DNA of 64,000 nucleotides from Puccinia triticina (lineage: Eukaryota > Basidiomycota > Pucciniomycetes > Pucciniales > Pucciniaceae), in contig NC_070567.1 in assembly GCF_026914185.1 (NCBI RefSeq), positions 6,598,001 through 6,662,000 of the forward strand, given 5' to 3'. Positions 15,449 to 60,359 of this stretch are shown piece after piece (positions within the stretch are counted from its first letter, which is position 1; every line of letters starts with the position of its first letter). Made by a program: the position numbers and the translations under genes. The notes below the pieces were generated by a model that worked only from the letters and a program-made list of their open reading frames with translations, ran no database searches and was not told the DNA's origin.

Positions 15449-16130
15449 CAAGATGTAAACCACAGGTTTACAAGATGTAAACCACAGGTTTACAAGATGT
15501 AAACCACAGGTTTACAAGATGTAAACCACAGGTTTACAAGATGTAAACCACAGGTTTACAAGTTGTAAACCACAGGTTTACAAGATGTAAACCACAGGTT
15601 TACAAGATGTAAACCACAGGTTTACAAGATGTAAACCACAGGTTTACAAGATGTAAACCACAGGTTTACAAGATGTAAACCACAGGTTTACAAGTTGTAA
15701 ACCACAGGTTTACAAGATGTAAACCACAGGTTTACAAGATGTAAACCACAGGTTTACAAGATGTAAACCACAGGTTTACAAGATGTAAACCACAGGTTTA
15801 CAAGTTGTAAACCACAGGTTTACAAGATGTAAACCACAGGTTTACAAGTTGTAAACCACAGGTTTACAAGATGTAAACCACAGGTTTACAAGTTGTAAAC
15901 CACAGGTTTACAAGATGTAAACCACAGGTTTATAAAGATGTAAACCACAGGTTTACAAGATGTAAATCACAGGTTTATAAGATGTAAACCACAGGTTTAC
16001 AAGATGTAAACCACAGGTTTATAAGATGTAAACCTGTGGTTTACAAGCTGTAAACCACAGGTTTAAAAGATGTAAACCACAGGTTTACCAGATATAAACC
16101 ACAGGTTTAAAAGATGCAAACCACAGTCTG
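15449..16130. repeat. 22-bp palindromic minisatellite, block 5
   Basis: Continuation of block 4. About 30 homogeneous forward units with occasional AAGTTG variants, decaying at 15930-16130 where single units are inverted (near 16030) before the 21-bp array begins. Confidence 0.95.
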
Positions 16131-17035
16131 CAAGGTGTCAATCATAGTTTACAAGGTGTAAACCACAGTTTACAAGGTGCAAACCACAGTTTACAAGGTG
16201 TAAACCACAGTTTACAAGGTGTAAACCACAGTTTACAAGGTGTAAACCACAGTTTACAAGGTGTAAACCACAGTTTACAAGGTGTAAACCACAGTTTACA
16301 AGGTGTAAACCACAGTTTACAAGGTGTAAACCACAGTTTACAAGGTGTAAACCACAGTTTACAAGGTGTAAACCACAGTTTACAAGGTGTAAACCACAGT
16401 TTACAAGGTGTAAACCACAGTTTACAAGGTGTAAACCACAGTTTACAAGGTTTAAACCACAGTTTACAAGGTGTAAACCACAGTTTACAAGGTGTAAACC
16501 ACAGTTTACAAGGTGTAAACCACAGTTTACAAGGTGTAAACCACAGTTTACAAGGTGTAAACCACAGTTTACAAGGTGTAAACCACAGTTTACAGGGTGT
16601 AAACCACAGTTTACAAGGTGTAAACCACATTTTACAAGGTGTAAACCACAGTTTACAAGGTGTAAACCACAGTTCACAAGGTGTAACCCACAGTTTACAA
16701 GAAGTAAACCACAGTTTACAAGGTGTAAACCACAGTTTACAAGGTGTAAACCACAGTTTACAAGGTGTAAACCACAGTTTACAAGGTGTAAACCACAGTT
16801 TACAAGGTGTAAACCACAGTTTACAAGGTGTAAACCACAGTTTACAAGGTGTAAACCACAGTTTACAAGGTGTAAACCACAGTTTACAAGGTGTAAACCA
16901 CAGTTTACAAGGTGTAAACCACAGTTTACAAGGTGTAAACCCCAGTTTAAAAGGTATAAACCACAGTTTACAAGGTGTAAACCACAGTTTACAAGGTGTA
17001 AACCCATGTTTGCAAGGTGTAAACCACTGATTACA
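16131..17035. repeat. 21-bp derivative of the minisatellite (about 43 units)
   Basis: The unit GTTTACAAGGTGTAAACC plus ACA is 21 bp, one base shorter than the neighbouring 22-bp unit and carrying GGT instead of GAT. It is very homogeneous, so one base was lost and the new form then amplified. Because 21 is divisible by three, two minus-strand frames stay open for over 300 codons as heptapeptide repeats; these are not treated as genes. Confidence 0.96.
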
Positions 17036-17500
17036 AAATATAAATGTATTAGAACGGCTTGCCTCATCTTGTCTTGGGGAAGGGGTCCTGCATACTATAG
17101 GAACAAGGGTCAGAGTCGTTAGGCATGACTCACATCGTTGTAAAAGTCTATTAGCTTGTCTTGCATCCGCATAGCCCAAACATCCAACTAATCATGGTTG
17201 AGAGGGGATTAGATCAACCACATTAACAAAAGAGGGCAGTGCAGAAAGGAACATAACTTACAATAGAAAACTGTCCATTTGAGAAAAAGAGATTCAGGAA
17301 TGTAGCTAGATTTTCTAGGATTTGAAGAGTTTGATATCCCCACGCGAATAGCGAAAGCCAAGACAAGGAAAAAAGAAGCGGCGAAGAGGATGTACATGGA
17401 AATAGTTCAGAGCAAAGGATTCCTTCCAAGGAAGACGCAACTGGCTGCCAATCCGGCAAAGACCAGACAGAAGAGCATCAAACTAAGATGGTCGGGATAA
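17036..17500. other. Unassigned single-copy sequence
   Basis: About 460 bp between the minisatellite and the 35-bp array. Small overlapping open frames on the minus strand (17209-17459) include a hydrophobic stretch but no recognisable family or start context. Nothing else seen. Confidence 0.3.
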
Positions 17501-25053: not shown

Positions 25054-25476
25054 TAATATTACGATCCGACAAAAAAAAAAAAAAAAAAAAAAAAAATCCT
25101 ACTCTTACAAACACTAGAAAATTTTTTCTTACTCTTTTACAAATTATACTCGTCGCTGTTCGCTTTCCGAACATTTCTTTTCGGAACACTTTCTCGTCCC
25201 CGGCTGCGTACTCTTATCGCGGTTTAATAATTCGACCCCACCGCCTTACCCTCGGTTAGTCGAGCTTTCCTTATCCCACTTTATTAGTTCGTGTCCTCCG
25301 TGGCCGAAGCGGCAGCGTCCCGTTGTACCAGAGAAGTTCTACCTGTTTGGAGTAGTCGACCAGTTAGTGGTTGACACCTCTGGGGTTGAGGCTTAGAATC
25401 GAGCATAGTGCTCTAAGAGAACATATAAAAACAGAACATTGGCTTACTTTTGTTCGTGGTTTTTTTCGCGAAGTGG

Positions 25477-26673
25477 ATGTCGAACCTAGGAAAGGTCGCA
25501 CATAGCCCGAAGGGCAAAGGAACGGCGGAACCGAAGGCCGAAGTCGAGGCTAACCGCCCGAACCCTCCTTTTAACGGCAGTTTTTACACTGGCGCGGACG
25601 TGAAGGAGATGTCGGACCAACAACGTCAGTGGCTCGTCGACCATAACTCCTTGTGCGACCAGTCAGCGTTGAACCTGTTACAAAATGGCGAGGGGAATTC
25701 AGTAGGTTCCTCCTCAGAGACCGTTGGGAAGTTGGAGGCAGCCCTGACGACCGCCTTTAAACAGATGAAGGTCGACCCACCTCAAGAATCCGCGCCGCCC
25801 GACGCTCGAGTCGGGTCCCAGGCTCAGCCCGCCCACCAGTTGGCAGGCAACCACCAAGAATCCCTTGAAGAGGACGACGAGTACTTCGACGACCTCGGAG
25901 AAGAATTGGTCCTCGAGAAGGACCCGATCAAGGCCCTCAAAGGATGGCCCAAGAAAGATAACCCCGTGTTCACGGGTGGCCCGGGTGAGAGTGGCCCTGA
26001 CTGGTTAGAAACCGTCGCGATGCTGCTCGAAGACCGCTGCATTCACCCCGCTATCTGGCATCGAGTCGCCGGCCTTCGCCTCAGTGGCAAGGCTTTTCGA
26101 GATTGGCGGGCTGCAGCGTCAGCCGGGACCCGTCCTAAATCCTGGGCGGAGTTCAAAGTCTGGCTGCTTCGCCTCAACGCAATAGGCGTTACCCCGGCGA
26201 TGATCGCGGCCGAGTTGAATAGGTTGAAGCAACAACCAAACGAGGCCGTCCAGTTGTTCTACGAGAGGTTCTGCGAGTGGCAGACCAAGGCGAACGCTAT
26301 CGGCTTCGCATACGACGAGCAGACGGCCTTCATCCAACGTTTGAACACCGGCCTAAGTCGAAAGGTCTCAGAATTCGTCAGCAATCAGTTGATCCTCGGC
26401 ACCCCGATCAACATGGACACTGTGTTCATGCACGCGGTCACTCACGATCAGCGATACCGCGAGTCGCAAGCGGCGCCAGTAGCCGGCGGTTCGGGATCGG
26501 GTAAGCGCCGAGCCGAGGGAGACGGAAACTCGTCCAACAAGAAGAAAGGCGAGTTCCCTTGTCATAACTGCAAGGAACTCGGCCACCGGGTCCAGAAGTG
26601 CCCGAAGCCCAAGACCGAAGCCCAGTTGGCTTGGGAGGCTAAGAACATAAAGCCTAAATTAAAAAAAGAGTAG
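25477..26673 (+). CDS. gag: gypsy Gag polyprotein (398 aa)
   Basis: Structural capsid and nucleocapsid protein of the element. I chose the ATG at 25477 (MSNLGK); the frame is open upstream without another ATG. The central region (about residues 160-300, with the KGWPKKDNPVF and WLETVAMLLEDR segments) looks like a retrotransposon Gag capsid domain. A CCHC zinc knuckle CHNCKELGHRVQKC lies at about residues 362-375, followed by a basic tail. The frame differs from that of pol, which starts 156 bp downstream. It appears intact. Confidence 0.93.
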   Translation: MSNLGKVAHSPKGKGTAEPKAEVEANRPNPPFNGSFYTGADVKEMSDQQRQWLVDHNSLCDQSALNLLQNGEGNSVGSSSETVGKLEAALTTAFKQMKVDPPQESAPPDARVGSQAQPAHQLAGNHQESLEEDDEYFDDLGEELVLEKDPIKALKGWPKKDNPVFTGGPGESGPDWLETVAMLLEDRCIHPAIWHRVAGLRLSGKAFRDWRAAASAGTRPKSWAEFKVWLLRLNAIGVTPAMIAAELNRLKQQPNEAVQLFYERFCEWQTKANAIGFAYDEQTAFIQRLNTGLSRKVSEFVSNQLILGTPINMDTVFMHAVTHDQRYRESQAAPVAGGSGSGKRRAEGDGNSSNKKKGEFPCHNCKELGHRVQKCPKPKTEAQLAWEAKNIKPKLKKE

Positions 26674-26828
26674 TCGGTGGTGAATCGTCTCTCCCACCGA
26701 CTTTAGCCGTAGTTCCTTCTCTTTCTTGCAATTTAAACACCATTAAGTTAGAGAGAGACCTACCTGAGCCTCATTGTGAGCAGAGCCACCGTGAGTTAGA
26801 AACAGCTGAGATTGCTGATCGCCCAGGC

Positions 26829-29800
26829 ATGGGGACAGCCGCTTCGGATGAGTTGGAGCCTGCCGGGGAGCCGCCGGGCGTCGCCACCGATGTTGTAAGT
26901 GATTGCCTGTGTCTTGATGGAGACCACGCAATGGAGTTGAGCAGCGTTGAAGCCCAAGGGGTCCGCGCTGAGTTCCATCATAGAATTGAGGGCCGTTTGG
27001 CCAGGGTCCTCTTGGATACGGGCGCTGGATCGTCCTATGTATCTGCTTCTTTCGTCACGGACCTCGGTTTACTGATCAGTCGTTCTCCCGAGTCCTTTAG
27101 GGTTACCGGAGCCTTCGGGGATCGGATTCTTGATGACAGATTAGCTACTGTCCGTTTCGTTTTAGCGGAGATCAGCTTCGCGGTAGTTTGTCGACTGGCA
27201 CCGTTGTCCAGCTACGACATTATTTTAGGCCGAGATTGGATCGCGAGCAATGTCGTCTCAACAGACTGGCGTACCAATACTTGGAACCTACAAAGCCTGA
27301 CAGGTAACGTAGTAGAATTTAGCTTAGCCTCTTCGTCATTATGTAGCACGTTGACTCACGAACTTGCCGTGATGAGTGACGACGATGAGGTGCTCCTCCC
27401 GCGATCGATCCGCCGCCACGAGTTCTACGAGGGCGCTAGGGAGTCGTTCGTCTGTCTCATGGAGTCAGAAGGAGTAGAAGGCCCAAGGGATGAACAGCCA
27501 GTAGGCTTACCTACGGCGTTCGGAACCGACGCCCAGTTATCAGAATCTTTGCAGTCGATAGTGACTCGCTTTGCAGAAGTCTTCGGACCAATATCGAAAG
27601 TCTCGGATAAGCCGAGGACAATCGAGCACCTCGTCCATACCGGCAAAGCCCAGCCCGTCCACCAGCCGGTGAGACATTTGTCCCCGGCGTTATTGGGTAC
27701 GCTGAAAGAGCGGCTGGCCGGCCTCCAGGAGGCTGGTTTTATCCGCCCATCGACCTCTCCATGGTCGTCGCCTATAGTAATGGTCAAGCACCCAACGTCA
27801 GGGAAGGTGCGGCTGTGTGTGGATTACAGAAAGGTTAATTCCCTTACCAAGAAAGATCGGCACCCGTTGCCGATAATCCAGGAGTGCTTTGATGCGCTCA
27901 GGGGCGCCAGGTTCTTTTCGAAGATAGACCTACAGCAGGGTTTTCATCAAATGAAAATAGCTGAATCTGACGTACCTAAAACCGCTTTCGGAACCAAGTA
28001 CGGCCATTTCGAATGGTTGGTGATGCCGTTTGGGCTCGTTAACGCCCCTAGTACATTCCAGAGAATGATGACGCAGCTGCTCCGAGAGTTTATCGACGAG
28101 TTCGTTCAGGTATACCTCGACGACATCTTGATTTACTCGAAGTCGGAAGCTGAGCACATCAAGCACGTCGAGCGAGTTCTAGAGGTCCTCCGGCGTGAGG
28201 AATTGAAATGTAGTGGAGCGAAATGCTCCTTTGGGTTGAGAGAGATCCAATACGTCGGCCATGTTATCGGATACAATTCGATTCGGCCGATGGACAAGAA
28301 GTTAATTTGCGTACGCGAGTGGCCCAAACCTCAGACGGTCTTCGACGTGCGCTCGTTTTTGGGCCTCTGTGGGTTCTACCGCAGATACGTGAAGAATTTC
28401 GCTAAGATAGCGGCCCCGTTACACGACCTAACAGCAGGCGGCGTAACAAAGAAGCAACCAGTTCAGTGGTTCCCGGTCCAAGAAGTGGCTTTCAAGCAGT
28501 TGAAAGAAGCACTCACGAGCGCACCGGTACTCCTAATGCCGGACGTTCTCAAGCGCTTCATAATGGAGACCGACGCCTCGGATTTCGCCGTGGGAGCAGT
28601 TCTGTTGCAAGACGGAGAGGACCTTGTCCTCCACCCGGTAGCGTTCGAGTCTTGTAAGCTAAACAAGGCGCAGGTGAACTATCCGGCGCAAGAAAGAGAA
28701 TTATTAGCGATTATCCATGCCTGGAGGAAGTGGCACGTATACCTGGACGGAGCCGTAGAAACGACGGTTGTTTATACTGACCATGCTTCGTTAGCCTATC
28801 TCTCCACGCAGCTCCTGCCGACGAAACGCCTCCTTCGCTGGATCGAGGAATTCGCCGAGATGGACATAGAAATTCGCTACAAGAAGGGAGCTGATAACAT
28901 CGTCCCTGATGCGCTCTCACGAAGGAGTGACCTGGCGCTGATGGAGGAGGTCACGGATAAGCTGCACGAATCCGACTGGCCCCTCATCATCCCGTACCTG
29001 TTAGAAAACAGGGACTTACCAGAAGGGATCCCAGAGCGATTGGTGACCCGAGCAGAACAGAATTTGAAGTTCTTCGAGTACGATCCCGCAGCTGAGACCT
29101 TGATGTATCTGGGCCGGCCGGGGTTGCCAGAAAGATCGCCCTTCGTGGCGTTCGCGTATTGATTTGATCTTCTTCGGTCTGTCCACGACGATCTTGGCCA
29201 CAGGAGCCGGGATTGCACCTTGCAGATCCTGCGGGGTCGGGGTTGGTGGCCGAAGAGGTACGATGATGTTCAGAGTTACATCCGTACGTGTGAGTCCTGC
29301 CAAATTCATGAAAGGCCACACCCAAACCAAGAAACTGCCCTGCAGAAGCCTCTGCCGGCAGTCCTTCCGTTCGAAAGATGGTCGTCAGACCTAATCCAGA
29401 TGACGGAGAGTTATAAGAGCCACTTTAAGTGGATTCTTACTGCAATCGATCATTGCACTTCATGGCCGGTAGCGGTCCCTCTGAAGGAAGCCTCAGCGGC
29501 TGAGATCGCTCAAGCAATTTTTGATCAGATTGTTACCCCTTTTGGGGTACCTAAAGAGTTCCTCACAGACCGAGGGTCTAACTACCTCTCGGCAGGATTC
29601 CAGAAATTCCTGGCAGCAGCCGGAATGAAACCAGTCCGAACGTCAGGGTACCATCCACAGACGAATGGTAAGAGCGAACGGTTTAATGGCATATTAGAAG
29701 CCGCTATCTTTCGCTTGAACAAATCCGGGGACCCTTCCAAGTGGGAAGACGTCCTCCCGGCCGCCCTGTTTTCCACTAGAATTCACATTAGCGATAGCAG

Positions 29801-30461
29801 CGGGTTTTCCCCGTTCGAGTTACTCTACGGAGTAAAGCCGCGACTGCCCCAAGATCGCAGGCGTATGATCGCTGCAGAGCCAGCCATCCCAGGCCAGAGC
29901 GAGCTCAGAAACCGTATTGAGCAGCTCAACAAGACCAGAACGGAGGCAGCCGGCAACACTGCCGTGCGCGCCTCGAGGAACAAGACAGCCTTCGATGAGA
30001 AAACCCATTTTGCACGAGACTTGGACAGTCTTGTCGAGGGCCAAGCCGTGAAGCTCCGAAATGAGAAGCATACCAAGGGAAGCCCGAGGTGGTTCGGACC
30101 ATTCACCATCACTAAAGTATTAGACAATAATGTTTACATCATTGCTGATCACGACGCAGTCGAGTACCCAAGACCGGTTAACGGCAACAGTCTACGACCG
30201 GTAGCACTCCGGTCGCTCATTGTCAATGACATGTGGGCCGCGCCACCCGCTATAGCTCAGCGGGAAAAGCGTGCCGATGCCAAAGTGGCTCGGGACTTAT
30301 TGAAGAAAACAAAAGTCTTAGCAAAGACCAAGAGAAACACGTCGGCTTCTGCCGAGGTGACGAGTTCAGCTACCCCAACACCCCCGGCTAACCCGCCGGC
30401 TCGGAGACTCAAGCTCCGGTTGGGCCCACCACCATCAGGGTCCGGGACGGCCCCCGTTTAG
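26829..30461 (+). pseudogene. pol: gypsy Pol polyprotein, interrupted by one TGA
   Basis: One frame from ATG 26829 to the stop at 30459-30461, interrupted only by TGA at 29160-29162. The first part (777 aa) has an aspartic protease (LLDTGAGSSYV, Asp at about residue 63), reverse transcriptase with YLDDILIYS (about residues 429-437) and RNase H (ETDASD, about residue 580). After the TGA come the integrase zinc-finger residues (VHDDLGH and CESCQ), then the DDE core (SSDLIQM, LTDRGSNY, KSERFNG) and an SH3-like tail (RWFGPFTITKV). The stop lies between RNase H and integrase and is preceded by T, so CGA to TGA in a TCGA context is a likely origin. Readthrough cannot be excluded, but mutation is simpler. 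Confidence 0.93.
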
Positions 30462-51476: not shown

Positions 51477-51768
51477 TGTTGTGGTAACCCTGTTCCTGTT
51501 CATACTATCACCCTCACATCACCTAAACCCTTCATAAATACTTCATTATTACTTCATATTCAGATTCTACACCCCATTTTACCCCTAGTCACCCACTCAT
51601 TTCACCTAGGATTTCCAAATGGATCAGCAGTTATTGGCATGTATAGTTTTGGCAGGTATTTTCTTCATACATATCCTTAGCATTATTACATACATCATTC
51701 ATTAGTATCATAACGACATAGGACTGCAGATCTTGTAGAGGTAGTATATGTTGGTACACCTCACACCT

Positions 51769-51840
51769 GTGGATATAGCTCAACGGTAGAGCAACCCAGC
51801 ATGCATCGGGGAGATGCGGGTTCGATTCCCCCTGTCCGCA
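51769..51840 (+). tRNA. tRNA-like sequence in LTR 1 of the TRIM
   Basis: 72 nt. The acceptor stem GTGGATA pairs with TGTCCGC (with G-U pairs) and the discriminator is A. The D arm is GCTC-AACGGTA-GAGC and the T arm GCGGG-TTCGATT-CCCCC (one mismatch). A box TAGCTCAACGG and B box GGTTCGATTCC are good. The anticodon arm pairs poorly and lacks U33, so no anticodon can be assigned; a pol III promoter rather than a working tRNA is likely. Confidence 0.55.
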
Positions 51841-51993
51841 CTATTCCTTTTACTCGCTCTACAGGTTATGAGCCCAGCGCTATAGGCAGCTGCGTACCTG
51901 GGATGAGCCTCTGGGAGGATTAGTGGGCTCTGTCACCGGTGTAGGTGTACAGGGGGTGTGTAGAGGTAGTATATGTTGGTACACCTCACACCT

Positions 51994-52065
51994 GTGGATA
52001 TAGCTCAACGGTAGAGCAACCCAGCATGCATCGGGGAGATGCGGGTTAGATTCCCCCTGTCCGCA
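51994..52065 (+). tRNA. tRNA-like sequence in LTR 2 of the TRIM
   Basis: Same 72 nt as the copy at 51769, except the B box reads GGTTAGATTCC. This changes an invariant C of the T loop and should weaken pol III recognition. Confidence 0.5.
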
Positions 52066-52806
52066 CTATTCCTTTTACTCGCTCTACAGATCTTACATAA
52101 CTTCATTACTCATTTTACCCTTAACATGAATCAGCAGTACATTCCTTCATAGTTCCTGTAGCTATTATCAAATGCTCATCATTATTTCATCTTCTACGTA
52201 GTTACCTTTCATGTACACTCCTTGGTCATTGCACCTTCATCATTACTGCTCATCTTCAGATATTATTACCATGTGCTCATCATGTATCACCCCCCTGTAG
52301 TACTTCTCACATATATAAACACCCCTCTAGATGTTGTATTCCCCATCATGCACTTTCTACTAAATCCCCTCTGTAGCACCTTTTAAACATCACCCTTATA
52401 TGCACTTTCACCCACTACACTTTGTATGCACTTTCCCCCACATACACTCAGTAGCACCTTTACACACCTCACTTAGATAACATTTCACCCCTCTGAAATA
52501 TATCTCCCAGCATATATCTCATTACACATCTCAGAGTGACTCCCAAAAGAGCTTCTGCTTTTCCCCTTCTCACTTCTCCTCTCTCACTCAGTAGGATTGA
52601 TACACCTCAACTCACTAGTGTTAAAGCCATCTAAGTCAAAGAGAATCATCAGCCACACCCTTTTCTTTTTCTTAGTGTAACCCTCTCTCCATCAGCATTA
52701 GTCAAGAGGGCAGCCTCACCAGCACCTGTAGCTTCTTCTACATTATTAGTAGTGTAGTTGACTATTTCCCCTCACAGCTCTTTCCTGATCTTTTAGGAGT
52801 TCCACA

Positions 52807-55486: not shown

Positions 55487-56758
55487 TCAAGCAAGGAAGT
55501 TCACCGCAAAACTAAGATCCGGCCTAGATCCAAGCGCGATGTAGTTGAGAGATCCAATAAAAGACTGATATAGCGTTGCGTTAATTGGCTCATCGGATGA
55601 TGTTGAGAATTTGTCTCCAGTAAGTGGAGTGTAAGTCGGGATGATGCTGGATTGAACCTCAGATTGGAATTTATTGATTGTCTGGTCGATTAACAACGGT
55701 TGACTCAGAAGAATGGTGTCGTTTTCATATTCCATCTTGATTCCCACGAGTTTGTCCGGACGGTCTTCCCACTTTACTCGGAGATTACTTTCAAGATTTT
55801 GTCGAAGATTTTGAAGAGCGGAATTGTCGTTGCTGAATACAATCCCATCATCCACGTGGATCCAAATTATGATAGTCGAGTTCCCTTTTTTATACCTATA
55901 CAAACATTCCTCCACTTCATCACAGTCAAAACCCCAGTTCAGCAAAAGTCCCTTGAAGTGCTTCCACCAGCAGCGGCTTGCTTGGCGAGTTCCGTACAAT
56001 GCTTTCTTCAGTTTGAGGACCTTCCCTTTCAAGTGAGGAAAAAGTTCAGTAGGTGGATCGACATACATGGTCTCGTCAATGGGACTATGAACGAAAGCGC
56101 CCGTTATATCAAACGAATTGATCTTCCATTTGTTCAAGATTGCTAGAGTGAGGAGTAGTTGTAATGTGGTTAGAGATGCCGTTGGTGCGAATGTCGACTT
56201 AACATCCCTTCTGATTCTCTGTTTGAAACCCCGGACCACAAATCTGGCCTTGAGTCTTTCGACGGATCCGTCAGACCAACGTTTGATGTCAAATACAAAT
56301 CTTGTGCCTATCAAGTATTTCTTCTCTTTTTCTTCAACATCGAATGTGTCGATCTGCTCTAGTTGTTCCCATTCAGATAAACATGCTGCTCGCCAGCTTT
56401 CTCGTTCAGGGCACAGGAGCGCGTGTTTCAAGCTGGTAGGAATATCGGCGTCAGATATTGCTTGGATGTCCTCGATTTGGTTATCCTGGGCTTCACAAGT
56501 TTCTTTGGTTGGTTCCTGGCCGAGACGGAGGGTCCTACGGACAGATAAAGTGTTAGGAGATGTTTTTGGAGAAGGAATGATTGGTTTCCCTTGAAAATCT
56601 AAAAACTCAGCACACTCTGAGTTGATGACCTTCTGAGTCGTCGGATTCCAGAAAAACCACCCTCGCTCGTCATCTTGGTAGCCAACAAGGTAGCCAATCC
56701 ATCCACGCGTGTCGAGTTTGTGGCGCCGTTCTCTTGGAATATGAATGCAAGCTTTGGT
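55487..56758 (-). pseudogene. pol: copia reverse transcriptase region
   Basis: Starts at the insertion boundary with KACIHIPRERRHKLD, the integrase C-terminal block. Reverse transcriptase motifs are TRFVFDIKRWSDGSVERLKA, FDITGAFVHSPI, KKALYGTRQASRCWW, and the catalytic IHVDDGIVFS. It ends at TGA 55487-55489 within VNFLA...FSSNPD. The same frame continues beyond the stop. Confidence 0.93.
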
Positions 56759-57665
56759 CACTGCAAGAAAAACTCTAGAAACTGCTTGCAGTTGAGATGC
56801 AAGATCTCAAGGCAAGCTGTGCCTCATGCAAGAATCAATCACTGGGTGATTCAATTTCCATGCACATTGCATAATTTATGCAAGAGGGAGTCTAAGGTAC
56901 AAAAAACTGAGTACAGGCTCCAAAATACTGAGTTGATACCTGTGCAAATTCCCCTTTCATGTGAAAATTCCCCTTTCATGTGCACATACCCCTTTCATGT
57001 TCACATATCTCTTTCATGTGCGTGTATCCCTTTCATGTGCGTGTATCCCTTTCACAATGTGTACATACCCCTTTCATCATGCTTTCATGACCCTTTCATG
57101 TTTACATTTCCCCTTTGAGTTTTTTACATCCTTTTCAACCCTTTCATCATTCAGGTTTACATACCCCTTTGATGTTTACATATCCCTTTCATGTGCAAAT
57201 ACCCCTTATTGCACATACCCCTTTCATGCATACATACCCCTTTCATGAATACATACCCCTTTCATGCATACATACCCCTTTCATCATGTGTACATATCCC
57301 TTCTATGTGTTAATACACCTTCTCACATTCCCCTTTCATGTGTACATATTCCTTTCATATGTACATATCCCTTTCATGTGTACATACCATTTTTATGTTA
57401 TTCTGGCTGGATTCAATGGCACACGGAGTGTTTTCTAAAAGAAAATAAAAGGGTGCTCAGGAGGATGCTCATTTGCAAGGTTGAAAATTTGTCTCAGCCT
57501 ACTGCATGAGCTCTACAGCATGTTAAGCATTGAGTTGCTGAACAAGGTGCACACTGAAGGTGCACCAGCATGGAATTTGGGTGCTTGACTCCAGCTTGAG
57601 CTGAGGCTTGATTCAAGCTTGCTGCATCTCAACTGCAAGCAGTTTCTAGAGTTTTTCTTGCAGTG
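56759..57665. mobile_element. 907-bp CACTG-ended element inserted in copia
   Basis: TIRs of about 43 bp: CACTGCAAGAAAAACTCTAG... on the left with its complement ending TTGCAGTG on the right. GGT is duplicated on both sides (56756-56758 and 57666-57668). CACT-starting TIRs with a 3-bp duplication indicate a CACTA-type non-autonomous element. The interior has a tandem array at about 56948-57395 built on CCCCTTTCATGTGTACATA (19-20 bp). Removing the insertion and one GGT restores the copia reading frame. Confidence 0.92.
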
Positions 57666-57668
57666 GGT

Positions 57669-58811
57669 GCCAAAAGGATAGAAGGAAGATGCCGAAGGTT
57701 CTTGATTGGACCATAACTCGAGTGGACTGGATTTGCACCGAGAGTTGGGAATTCGATTAATCAAATAACACGCACATCTGTACGCGTAAGACCAAAGTGA
57801 ATCCGGTAGAGAAGAATGCCTGAGTGTAGTCCGGGCGATGTCACCAAGCGTGCAATTGAGTCTTTCCGCCTCGCCGTTCTGCTTGGGAGTATATGGAGAT
57901 GTGAATAAAAGGGATGTGCCAACAGATGATAGGTAGGATTCAAAGGACCGGGTAGTGTATTCTTTGGCATTGTCGCAGCGAATGAATTTAGGAGCCAAAT
58001 TAAAAAAAGAAATGAGACGTTTGATTAGAGCAATGATGATTGTGGGAACCTCCGAGCGATTCTTCATGGGAAATACAAAAGAATATGTTGTCGCATGATC
58101 CCGGACTGTTAAGAGAAACCGATGTCCACTGATATCCGGGTCGAGAGGACCCAGCACGTCCGTTACTAGCAGATCAAGTCAATTGTTCATTTGGATTACC
58201 TCCGGGAGATGATGACGTCGACGTTCGCTTTTGCATTGTTTGCACGTCTCGCAAATGAATGGGGTCCAGGACTTCAGATCGAATGATGGTACAAAGCGAC
58301 GTAAAAAATCCTTCACCGTGATATCAGATACATGGCCTAGCCGGCAGTGCCACTCGTAAGACGGAGAAGAGATTTGTAAGTTGGGAGAGAGAGATCGGGC
58401 AGAAGGGAAGATCGGTTGAAACGAATTTTCGGACACAATCCAAGACCGGTTTTGATATTGAGCAGTAAAGGAAAGAAAAGGAGAACGAAGTCGAATGTCA
58501 TTGTTCGGCAAGAATTCTGGCCGAAATCCCAAGTCGATGAATTGACCAAGACTAAGAAGCGTGCCCTTCATTTCCGGGCTGTACAGTACCCGTGGAACCG
58601 CTAGGATACCAGCCCCACTGGTTATCTTGAGGTGACCACTGTGTGTCGCGAGCATGAAACCCGAGGCAGACGCTAAGTTCAGCCTGACTGGAGGAGATAA
58701 TTTTGAGAGATAAGAAAATTGATGAACAGATTGGCTCACGTGATGGGTCGCTCCAGAATCCAAAACCGTGCCTGCGCCAGCGGCACCTGTTGCATCCGCC
58801 CCCACTGCCGA
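57669..58811 (-). pseudogene. pol: copia protease and integrase region
   Basis: From MGADATG after TGA 58812-58814. Protease motif VLDSGATHHV; GAG-pre-integrase finger WHCRLGH...CETCKQCK. TGA at 58179-58181 follows VIQMNN. The integrase core is TDVLGPLDPD, IRCDNAKEYTT and NGEAERLNC, giving the D, D and E positions. It ends at the CACTG-element boundary near SASSFYPFGT. Confidence 0.93.
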
Positions 58812-60359
58812 TCAAATCGCCGGATTCTCCTCAAGTCTAGTGGGGGGGTCGTTCGGAGGTGCGGCTTGACGGGCAAAACCGGAAGCGGGGCGAACAGGTG
58901 TTGGGGTATTGGGAAGTTGCAGGCCGGCGTCTCTGTGGAGGGTCGGGCAAGTCGATCTCCAGTGTCCCAAGACCCCACAATAGAGGCATGGCCTGCCGGT
59001 GAGAAGGTTTGGATCGCTTGGACCGGTGTTTCCTTTTCGGATATTGTTGATCGCTGCCGCAATGTCGTTGATCGTCGGATTTCCTGGAGTGCCGATGTTC
59101 GGATTGCGTGGAGGATTGTTCCCGGATGCCGGTGGACGTGCTTGAGGTGGCGGGCGTTGTGATCGGTCCTGTCTTGGTTGCTGGTTAGTTGCCGGCCGGG
59201 GTGCTCCCCACTGAGTGTTTTGTGGCTGATTCTGCCAAGTGCGGAAGACCGCCCGTACCGTCGCAGTAGACGAATCAAAACAAACTGTTTCACCATAGGC
59301 TGACGTAAGGATAGCTTGAATGTCTCTCGCCGAGACGTCGGGTTTCGCGCCAAGTTGCAAAGAAATGTTTTGAAAAAGTTGCGATCGGGACATGGACGGG
59401 GGAGGCGGCACAACGGACTGGAGTATAAGACTTTCCACGAGGGGAGAGAGAGACGCTCCAACCTTCTGTAAATCAGAGAAGATGTCAAAAATTTTGTTGA
59501 AGAGGCCAGGTATTTGCAAAGGATCTGTCGATTGTCCCAAGACCCGTAATTCCATAAGTCTGTCGACGAGTTCCATTTGTCGGAATCGTATGGTTCCTTG
59601 GAAATTGGTTTCAACCGCTGTGTAAGCCTCAGTTCCCATTGTGTATCGATCCACAAGCAACGACAATTCATCGTGTACCGTGATTTGAATAAGAAAGAGA
59701 AGGCAAGTATTTTCTTGAGTCAACAGTTTGGCGAAGTTTTCAGTTTTGTCAAAAAAGTTCGCGTGACCGAGCGTGAGAAGAATGACTCGGGTGAGGCCCT
59801 GTTTCCATTTATTGAAATTCAATCCATCAGCCGATAGCAACTCCACGTCCTGTTTGTAAATACTTGGCTGTTGGAGGAACTTCGTTCTTGGTGATATGTC
59901 TACGGTGTTGCTTTGTGACATGGGCGGAATGGGCGATTCGGGGGTATGAATGGGTTCCGAAGTCGTTGATGACGATTCCGATGAATATTGAGGAGGGCTC
60001 GTACCCCGCGGTATGTTGATCTTTGGTCAATATCCCGGTTGTGGAATTAATTGGTTGATAGGAAGTCCAAAAGGGTTCCTGACTATGCCATCGTCAGATG
60101 AGATTGAAGTCAATATTAAAGCACCTTCTTCAATGTGTCGAGTTACTACTTTAGAAAATATGTAAGATACCGCAGAAATGAAAGGTGAAGGCGGACAATC
60201 GTGGTTTGTCGGGTCTGTTTTCTCTTCGACCGGGGAAGGTGGTAGTGGTGGCAATTGCAAGAGTGCTTTATAGGCCTTTGTTTGTTTCGGTCGTTTAGCT
60301 CTAGTCGTTGGTGGTAGTAAGCCTGCGAGTGCCGGTTTATCTCTGTGGGTTTTTACCAT
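58812..60359 (-). pseudogene. gag: copia Gag region with one internal TGA
   Basis: Opens at ATG 60359-60357 (MVKTHRDKPAL), 75 bp after the LTR. TGA at 60029-60027 interrupts it, and the same frame resumes (MSQSNTVDISPRTKFLQQ at 59921) through a copia Gag-like helical domain (LLVDRYTMGTEAYTAVETNF, LMELRVLGQSTD). A CCHC knuckle CLYCGVLGHWRSTC precedes the TGA at 58814-58812, after which protease follows in the same frame. Confidence 0.92.

What the first reader, a model, noticed from the sequence alone, without database searches (positions are those of the whole stretch)
51734..52088. Miniature LTR retrotransposon whose LTRs carry a tRNA-like pol III promoter
130-bp TG...CA direct repeats, a 5-bp duplication GATCT, a primer-binding site and a purine tract define a TRIM of only 355 bp. 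Each LTR contains a full-length tRNA-like sequence with good A and B boxes. Plant Cassandra TRIMs carry a 5S rRNA promoter in the LTR; a tRNA-type counterpart in a fungus would be a parallel solution in which pol III makes the element's RNA. I do not know of a described fungal example.
Basis: partly seen in the sequence, partly recalled or inferred. Interest (0 to 1): 0.9.

Follow-up and report, generated by a model that had tools for sequence, protein, structure and literature searches.

The report
tRNA-promoter mini retrotransposon in rust
A 355-letter parasitic DNA element in a rust fungus carries a tRNA-like switch in both ends; its kind was described in 2024 under the name Helenus, and sister elements in the same genome are found fused to full-size retrotransposons at the shared primer site, which points to the helper that copies them.

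Summary
It is a family: 61 LTR-PBS junctions in the genome, and 36 of 38 insertion units examined have perfect 5-bp TSDs. The host genome (18 contigs, 122.8 Mb) fits P. triticina.

What I did not find in print: a sister Helenus family here (tRNA-Pro-TGG, same PBS) forms hybrids with Ty1/copia-type elements. Four hybrid insertions, each with one perfect 5-bp TSD, are joined at the PBS: copia LTR + Helenus interior/LTR (1), and Helenus LTR - copia - copia LTR - Helenus interior/LTR (3; RVT_2 seen inside two). The likely cause is plus-strand transfer between co-packaged cDNAs, which would identify the helper. No such hybrid was found for the window's own Ala family (60 of 61 junctions run into an Ala interior). 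Pol III transcription is inferred; no RNA was examined.

The parts
51729..51733 (.). 5' target-site duplication GATCT
51734..51863 (+). 5' LTR, 130 bp, TGTAGAG...CTCTACA; equals the column majority of the family's LTR copies
51769..51841 (+). tRNA-like sequence in 5' LTR (ARAGORN tRNA-Ala TGC; Rfam RF00005 41.3 bits)
51776..51786 (+). box A-like TAGCTCAACGG
   Evidence: sequence; identical in 60 of 77 distinct LTR copies; motif recalled, and box motifs as described in PMC10886601
51819..51829 (+). box B-like GGTTCGATTCC
   Evidence: sequence; identical in 58 of 77 distinct LTR copies
51848..51851 (+). TTTT, candidate weak pol III terminator in 5' LTR (would have to be read through)
   Evidence: one of the only two T4 runs in the element, same places in 29 of 30 loci; the other locus has T5 in LTR1
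51864..51880 (+). primer-binding site, of the published anticodon-loop tRNA-iMet type by recall and paper (this genome's iMet gene not tested)
51864..51958 (+). 95-bp non-coding interior
51950..51958 (+). short polypurine tract, CAGGGGGTG before 3' LTR
51959..52088 (+). 3' LTR, one mismatch to 5' LTR
51994..52066 (+). tRNA-like sequence in 3' LTR (39.1 bits; box B carries C to A at 52048)
52073..52076 (+). TTTT in 3' LTR, candidate end of the pol III RNA
52089..52093 (.). 3' target-site duplication GATCT

Best explanation
It is a recently active copy of a Helenus-type TRIM: a non-coding LTR retrotransposon whose LTRs hold a degenerate tRNA gene as an internal pol III promoter. Shown: the element, its copies, TSDs, the shared PBS sequence and LTR pairs. 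Inferred: pol III starts near 51769 in LTR1, reads through the four-T stop at 51848, and stops at the four-T run in LTR2 (52073). That gives an RNA of about 308 nt with the tRNA-like part as the R region at both ends, so each new copy keeps its promoter. A tRNA-iMet 5' half primes at 51864, and the proteins of a Ty1/copia element do the copying and integration. For the sister Pro-TGG family in this genome the helper is pointed to directly by hybrid insertions joined at the shared PBS; for the window's Ala family the helper is inferred from the same PBS.
For: Pairs of LTRs with 5-bp TSDs in 36 of 38 units. 59 of 61 Ala LTR-PBS junctions run into an Ala interior within 2 mismatches, and one more does at higher divergence. 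tRNA-like hits in both LTRs. Only about 35 bp of LTR lies upstream of the tRNA-like part, little room for a pol II promoter. Same anatomy as published fungal Helenus. Hybrids of the Pro family: CH93 with TSD AACCT; C6, C18, C4 with TSDs TTATT, TCTAG, TCTGA; RVT_2 (PF07727, the copia-type RT) inside the C6 and C18 hybrids. Two further sites with this PBS that are neither Ala nor Pro have RVT_2 2.9-3.0 kb downstream on the same strand, C4:36921 and C5:251689, both with stop codons inside.
Against: No RNA data. The T4-run pattern is not beyond chance: between the two T4 runs, 953 of 1000 shuffles (Ala) and 208 of 1000 (Pro) also lack a T4. The tRNA-like RNA does not fold better than shuffles (z -0.87; 31 of 200 fold at least as well) and the best fold lacks the full cloverleaf; this fits a promoter rather than a tRNA but does not prove it. 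No Ala-copia hybrid was found. The genome's own tRNA-iMet gene was not checked.
Confidence: 0.9

Rival explanations
1. The 130-bp repeats are an ordinary tRNA gene duplicated in tandem.
For: Both tRNA-finding tools call a tRNA in each repeat.
Against: Dispersed on many contigs with 5-bp TSDs in 36 of 38 units, a 95-bp interior and a solo LTR with a TSD. Rfam aligns 10 nt between the anticodon-stem strands and the fold is poor.
Confidence: 0.02
2. A tRNA-derived SINE moved by a LINE, in which paired tRNA units mimic LTRs.
For: tRNA head, short length, non-coding.
Against: TG...CA ends, fixed 5-bp TSDs (integrase-like), no 3' tail, PBS and purine tract, solo LTR, and Pro-family hybrids with copia joined at the PBS.
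Confidence: 0.02
3. A TRIM transcribed by pol II; the tRNA-like sequence is a passenger or a decoy.
For: No RNA evidence for pol III; box B of LTR2 in this copy is mutated; T4-run placement is not beyond chance.
Against: Only about 35 bp of LTR upstream of the tRNA-like part; a tRNA-like sequence recurs in a second, different LTR here, with box A-like TAGTACAGTGG and box B-like GGTTCAACTCC, and in 113 published Pucciniales families.
Confidence: 0.08
4. For the Pro-family hybrids: a copia circle recombined by homology into an already inserted Helenus, rather than strand transfer before integration; or one ancestral hybrid re-transposed as a unit.
For: The C6, C18 and C4 structures equal a one-LTR copia circle inserted at the Helenus PBS. 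C6 and C4 have similar leaders, so those two could descend from one hybrid.
Against: Only 15-18 bp of homology for recombination. CH93 has a copia LTR at one end and a Helenus LTR at the other within one TSD, which circle insertion does not give. C18 has a clearly different leader and LTR end.
Confidence: 0.2

Closest known systems
Helenus (Kojima 2024, PMC10886601; read: parts 1-4 of 6 of the text, the figures-and-tables section, and a term search)
   Same: TRIM with a tRNA-like sequence in each LTR, PBS mostly of anticodon-loop type in fungi, purine tract, 5-bp TSDs in fungi, copia as proposed helper; P. triticina tRNA-Ala-TGC 137, of which 133 assigned to Helenus-4_PTrit, and tRNA-Pro-TGG 128, of which 123 to Helenus-5_PTrit
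   Different: Nothing found in the window element differs. Words beginning chimer-, hybrid- or methylat- have no occurrence in the main text, so copia-Helenus hybrids and CpG decay are not described there under those words. Identity to the Helenus-4_PTrit consensus not tested (supplements closed).
Cassandra (plant TRIM with 5S rRNA; PMC7215508 abstract and passages; the 2008 paper is not held)
   Same: pol III-type promoter in both LTRs, non-coding, forms multi-LTR arrays
   Different: 5S rRNA rather than tRNA, plants, longer
Template-switching complexes (Sabot & Schulman 2007, PMC1950507, whole text)
   Same: Multi-LTR insertions within one 5-bp TSD, explained by co-packaged RNAs
   Different: There the two halves are similar elements and the switch is placed in R; here copia-type elements and a TRIM are joined at the PBS
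Asymmetric-LTR proviruses (Joseph et al. 2022, PMC9278108, passages)
   Same: The authors propose plus-strand strong-stop DNA jumping between two templates at the PBS
   Different: Retrovirus, one lineage; here two different elements

Membership tests
Helenus | TRIM: two LTRs, short (311-1263 bp in the paper), no coding capacity | tested here: met
   355 bp, LTR pair, 95-bp interior
Helenus | tRNA-like sequence with boxes A and B inside each LTR | tested here: met
   box B of LTR2 in the window copy has one change
Helenus | 5-bp TSD (fungal Helenus) | tested here: met
   36 of 38 units
Helenus | PBS directly after the 5' LTR, complementary to a tRNA (mostly iMet anticodon loop in fungi) | tested here: inconclusive
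   PBS present and abutting; complementarity rests on the paper and recall, own iMet gene search unanswered
Helenus | Sequence identity to Helenus-4_PTrit consensus | not testable with these tools
   Supplements closed; isotype Ala-TGC and copy number agree
Helenus | Mobilised by copia elements | tested here: inconclusive
   Hybrids point to it for the Pro family; for the Ala family only the shared PBS
TRIMp3 | Transcribed by RNA polymerase III | not testable with these tools
   No RNA reads on hand
Cassandra | 5S rRNA sequence in the LTR | tested here: not met
   Rfam finds tRNA, no 5S rRNA
tRNA-derived SINE | No LTRs or PBS; variable TSDs | tested here: not met

The most novel reading that the evidence does not exclude
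Helenus TRIMs and copia elements of this rust are reverse-transcribed in the same particle, and the obligatory plus-strand jump at their shared PBS swaps LTRs between them. Besides naming the helper, this places a tRNA-type (pol III) LTR in front of a copia: the C18 hybrid holds an RVT_2 in an open frame of 1445 aa between two tRNA-Pro LTRs. It would be a standing route by which TRIM LTRs and copia LTRs are exchanged, and would explain how TRIM dependence on a helper is kept by little more than a PBS.
Probability: 0.65. Interest if true: 0.6.

Novelty: already known. Interest (0 to 1): 0.42.

Why it matters
The window element shows from raw sequence that a tRNA-type counterpart of Cassandra exists in fungi, which the 2024 Helenus paper had already reported. 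Such elements inflate tRNA gene counts in rust genomes. [quoted passage not shown] Hybrid insertions joined at the PBS and closed by a single TSD are physical records that both were reverse-transcribed together, and they name the copia lineages involved.

Tried and rejected
Tandem tRNA gene and SINE readings were rejected (see rivals). T4-run avoidance as evidence for pol III was tested and is not beyond chance. A search for Ala-copia hybrids gave none: 59 of 61 junctions pair with an Ala interior within 2 mismatches, one (C18:375467) with a more diverged Ala interior, and one (C15:1536753) is another element with a similar LTR end and no tRNA found by ARAGORN in the 196 bp read, of which 148 bp lie before the PBS. 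The window's own copia (about 55.5-60 kb, - strand) was considered as helper; no other match to this PBS with up to 3 mismatches lies in the window. Pfam gave no hit to the 74-aa piece upstream of the C6 copia LTR or to the 76-aa L092 piece, so copia identity rests on RVT_2 hits. Plasmid collection: no match. My first CpG count (80 LTRs) included one truncated LTR extended into flank; the figures used are the recount without it.

Full report
What is there. ARAGORN and Rfam call a tRNA-like sequence in each repeat. Boxes A and B read TAGCTCAACGG (51776) and GGTTCGATTCC (51819); in LTR2 of this copy box B has one change (52048). The RNA is not a convincing tRNA: Rfam places 10 nt between the anticodon-stem strands and the fold is no better than shuffles.

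It is a family with integrase-type insertions. The window's genome (G000, 18 contigs, 122.8 Mb) has 43 matches covering all 355 bases at 98-100% (40 of 94 candidates scored, so a lower bound; some overlap in arrays) and 61 LTR-PBS junctions within 2 mismatches of 26 nt, against 0 for the reversed control. From the 90 loci fetched I derived 38 insertion units: 36 have perfect 5-bp TSDs. These 36 are 31 simple elements, one solo LTR, two 3-LTR arrays, one inverted dimer and one rearranged unit; the two without a perfect TSD are a truncated copy and a 4-of-5 match. A decayed copy fetched later (L100) is not in this count. Of the 33 simple two-LTR units, 10 have identical LTRs, so movement is recent.

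Species and name. P. triticina haplotypes have 18 chromosomes and 121.6-123.9 Mb (PMC10627818, passages), which fits G000 but does not prove it. Kojima 2024 (PMC10886601; parts 1-4 of 6, tables and legends read) describes Helenus: TRIMs with a tRNA-like sequence in the LTR, 5-bp TSDs in fungi and mostly anticodon-loop PBSs there, 113 families in Pucciniales. Its Table 2 gives P. triticina tRNA-Ala-TGC 137, 133 of them Helenus-4_PTrit, and tRNA-Pro-TGG 128, 123 of them Helenus-5_PTrit. This genome holds an Ala-TGC family (the window's) and a Pro-TGG family. About 60 two-LTR Ala elements agree with 133 tRNA calls. I therefore take the window element to be Helenus-4_PTrit; the consensus itself was not seen. 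In a search for Helenus/TRIMp3 since 2023 (10 of 838 papers listed), Kojima's is the only listed paper that holds these words.

How it most likely works. Only about 35 bp of LTR precede the tRNA-like part, so the promoter is most likely the tRNA-like part itself, read by pol III (inferred). The only T4 runs lie just after each tRNA-like part (51848, 52073; same places in 29 of 30 loci, the other having T5 in LTR1). An RNA from about 51769 to 52076 needs read-through of the first and a stop at the second; the tRNA-like part then forms R at both ends. The absence of other T4 runs is not significant. The Pro family has the same layout with T4 after the tRNA-like part.

The helper. The 17-nt PBS occurs 102 times exactly, control 0. 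I fetched 12 stretches holding 13 of these sites, chosen outside the Ala hits then known: five hold plain Pro-Helenus elements or arrays (L091, L094, L096, L098, L101), three a Pro interior behind another LTR (L093, L095, L102), one a decayed Ala copy (L100), and three (L092, L097, L099) an LTR end without a tRNA call in the 350 bp upstream, followed by a leader and related reading frames. Of the five plain Pro loci, three have a perfect outer TSD (AAATC, ATTGG, ACCAG); L096 has 4 of 5 and L098 none. L092's LTR has a 91% partner about 5.3 kb downstream. For L099 and for the PBS at C5:251689 (not fetched) an RVT_2 domain lies 2.96 and 2.90 kb downstream on the same strand, both with stop codons. 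So copia-type elements share this PBS.

The hybrids. L093 has a tRNA-less 5' LTR but a Pro-Helenus interior and 3' LTR. With 700 bp more upstream the whole reads: AACCT, LTR of 563 bp starting TGTGGCG, PBS, 83-bp Helenus interior, 246-bp tRNA-Pro LTR, AACCT. The first 173 bp of that LTR are 88% identical to an LTR at C3:4865163 that has RVT_2 777 bp upstream. At C6, C18 and C4 a tRNA-Pro LTR is followed by PBS and a different leader, and 4-5 kb on by the end of a tRNA-less LTR, PBS, Helenus interior and tRNA-Pro LTR; the three are bounded by TTATT, TCTAG and TCTGA on both sides. Only the junctions were read, plus about 1.4 kb at the 3' end of C6 and 0.45 kb of C18. RVT_2 lies inside the C6 hybrid (open frame 671 aa) and the C18 hybrid (1445 aa); for C4 no RVT_2 was among the 150 of 1760 candidates scored, so copia is inferred there from its leader and LTR end, which resemble those of C6 by eye. 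Genome-wide for the Pro family within 2 mismatches, judged by the last 13 LTR bases: of 40 interiors, 32 follow a Pro LTR end, 6 follow a copia-type LTR end (C2:133724, C2:2448697, C3:6432835, C4:4763938, C6:1201260, C18:4090047), and 2 follow neither (C12, C15); of 39 LTR-PBS matches, 32 run into a Pro interior, 4 into a copia-type leader (C4:698945, C4:4768723, C6:1196088, C18:4094798), 2 are copia-type LTR ends, 1 is another LTR. TSDs were checked in the four hybrids whose both ends were read, 4 of 4; the C2:133724 hybrid has a broken 3' LTR, and C3:6432835 and C4:698945 were read at one junction only. C18 differs clearly from C6 and C4 in leader and LTR end; C6 and C4 are similar in leader, so those two could be one hybrid that moved again. 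At least CH93, C18 and C6/C4 look like separate events.

Reading of the hybrids. The junction is the PBS every time. In LTR-element replication the plus-strand end carrying LTR-PBS must anneal to the PBS of the minus strand. If that jump goes to a co-packaged molecule of the other element, CH93 follows from one jump and the C6/C18/C4 form from two. Joseph et al. (PMC9278108, passages) propose such a jump at the PBS for a retrovirus, and Sabot and Schulman (PMC1950507, whole text) explain multi-LTR insertions with TSDs by co-packaging. The rival, recombination of a copia circle into an inserted Helenus, does not give CH93. This is strong evidence for the copia helper of the Pro family. For the window's Ala family no hybrid was found, so its helper is inferred from the shared PBS. 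Kojima argued for copia from PBS and interior similarity; words beginning chimer- or hybrid- do not occur in that paper's main text, and searches (15 of 135, 12 of 18 and 12 of 48 papers listed; titles and starts of abstracts seen, apart from the papers named) showed no report of TRIM-copia hybrids.

Decay. In 77 distinct LTR copies compared with the window's LTR1, 60 of 62 changes at the 12 CpG positions are C-to-T or G-to-A, against 9 such changes at 54 other C/G positions, 30-fold more per site; 18 further changes are of other kinds. Two of the CpGs lie in boxes A and B. This is the usual mark of methylated cytosine decay and would weaken the promoter; methylation itself was not measured.

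Verdict. Observation confirmed, interpretation supported, element already known as Helenus. The new part is the set of PBS-joined copia-Helenus insertions.

Noticed in passing
C8:7122277-7122986 (L023, L047): Two complete Ala elements tail to tail with no base between the LTRs, and a single outer TSD AACCC: an inverted dimer that went in as one unit.
   Followed up: partly
C17:3400784-3401285 (L012, L062): Element, then 17 bp resembling an inverted LTR start, then an LTR in the other orientation, outer TSD GGACA: looks like a self-integration product.
   Followed up: partly
C9:488667-489246, C3:8458707-8459286 (Ala); L094 (Pro): Three-LTR arrays with one outer TSD each, so they may also come from PBS transfer before integration.
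   Followed up: partly
77 distinct Ala LTR copies: Substitutions pile up at CpG sites, two of them in boxes A and B.
   Followed up: yes
C15:1536605-1536800 (L122, L120): LTR end without a tRNA call whose last bases plus PBS resemble the Ala LTR end, followed by a copia-like leader: a candidate helper for the Ala family.
   Followed up: partly
C14:1274510-1274600 (L119): Another LTR end with a T4 run and nearly the same PBS but a different interior, perhaps a further Helenus family.
   Followed up: no
C11:4194010 and 4194177: Two Ala PBS sites only 167 bp apart, not a standard 225-bp array.
   Followed up: no
window 25429-30461 +: Ty3/gypsy-type element: gag-like, protease, RVT_1, RNase H, integrase.
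   Followed up: partly
window 55487-60026 -: Ty1/copia-type element with RVT_2; no second match to the Helenus PBS in the window.
   Followed up: partly
window 16098-17191: Minisatellite-like repeat open in several frames on both strands.
   Followed up: no
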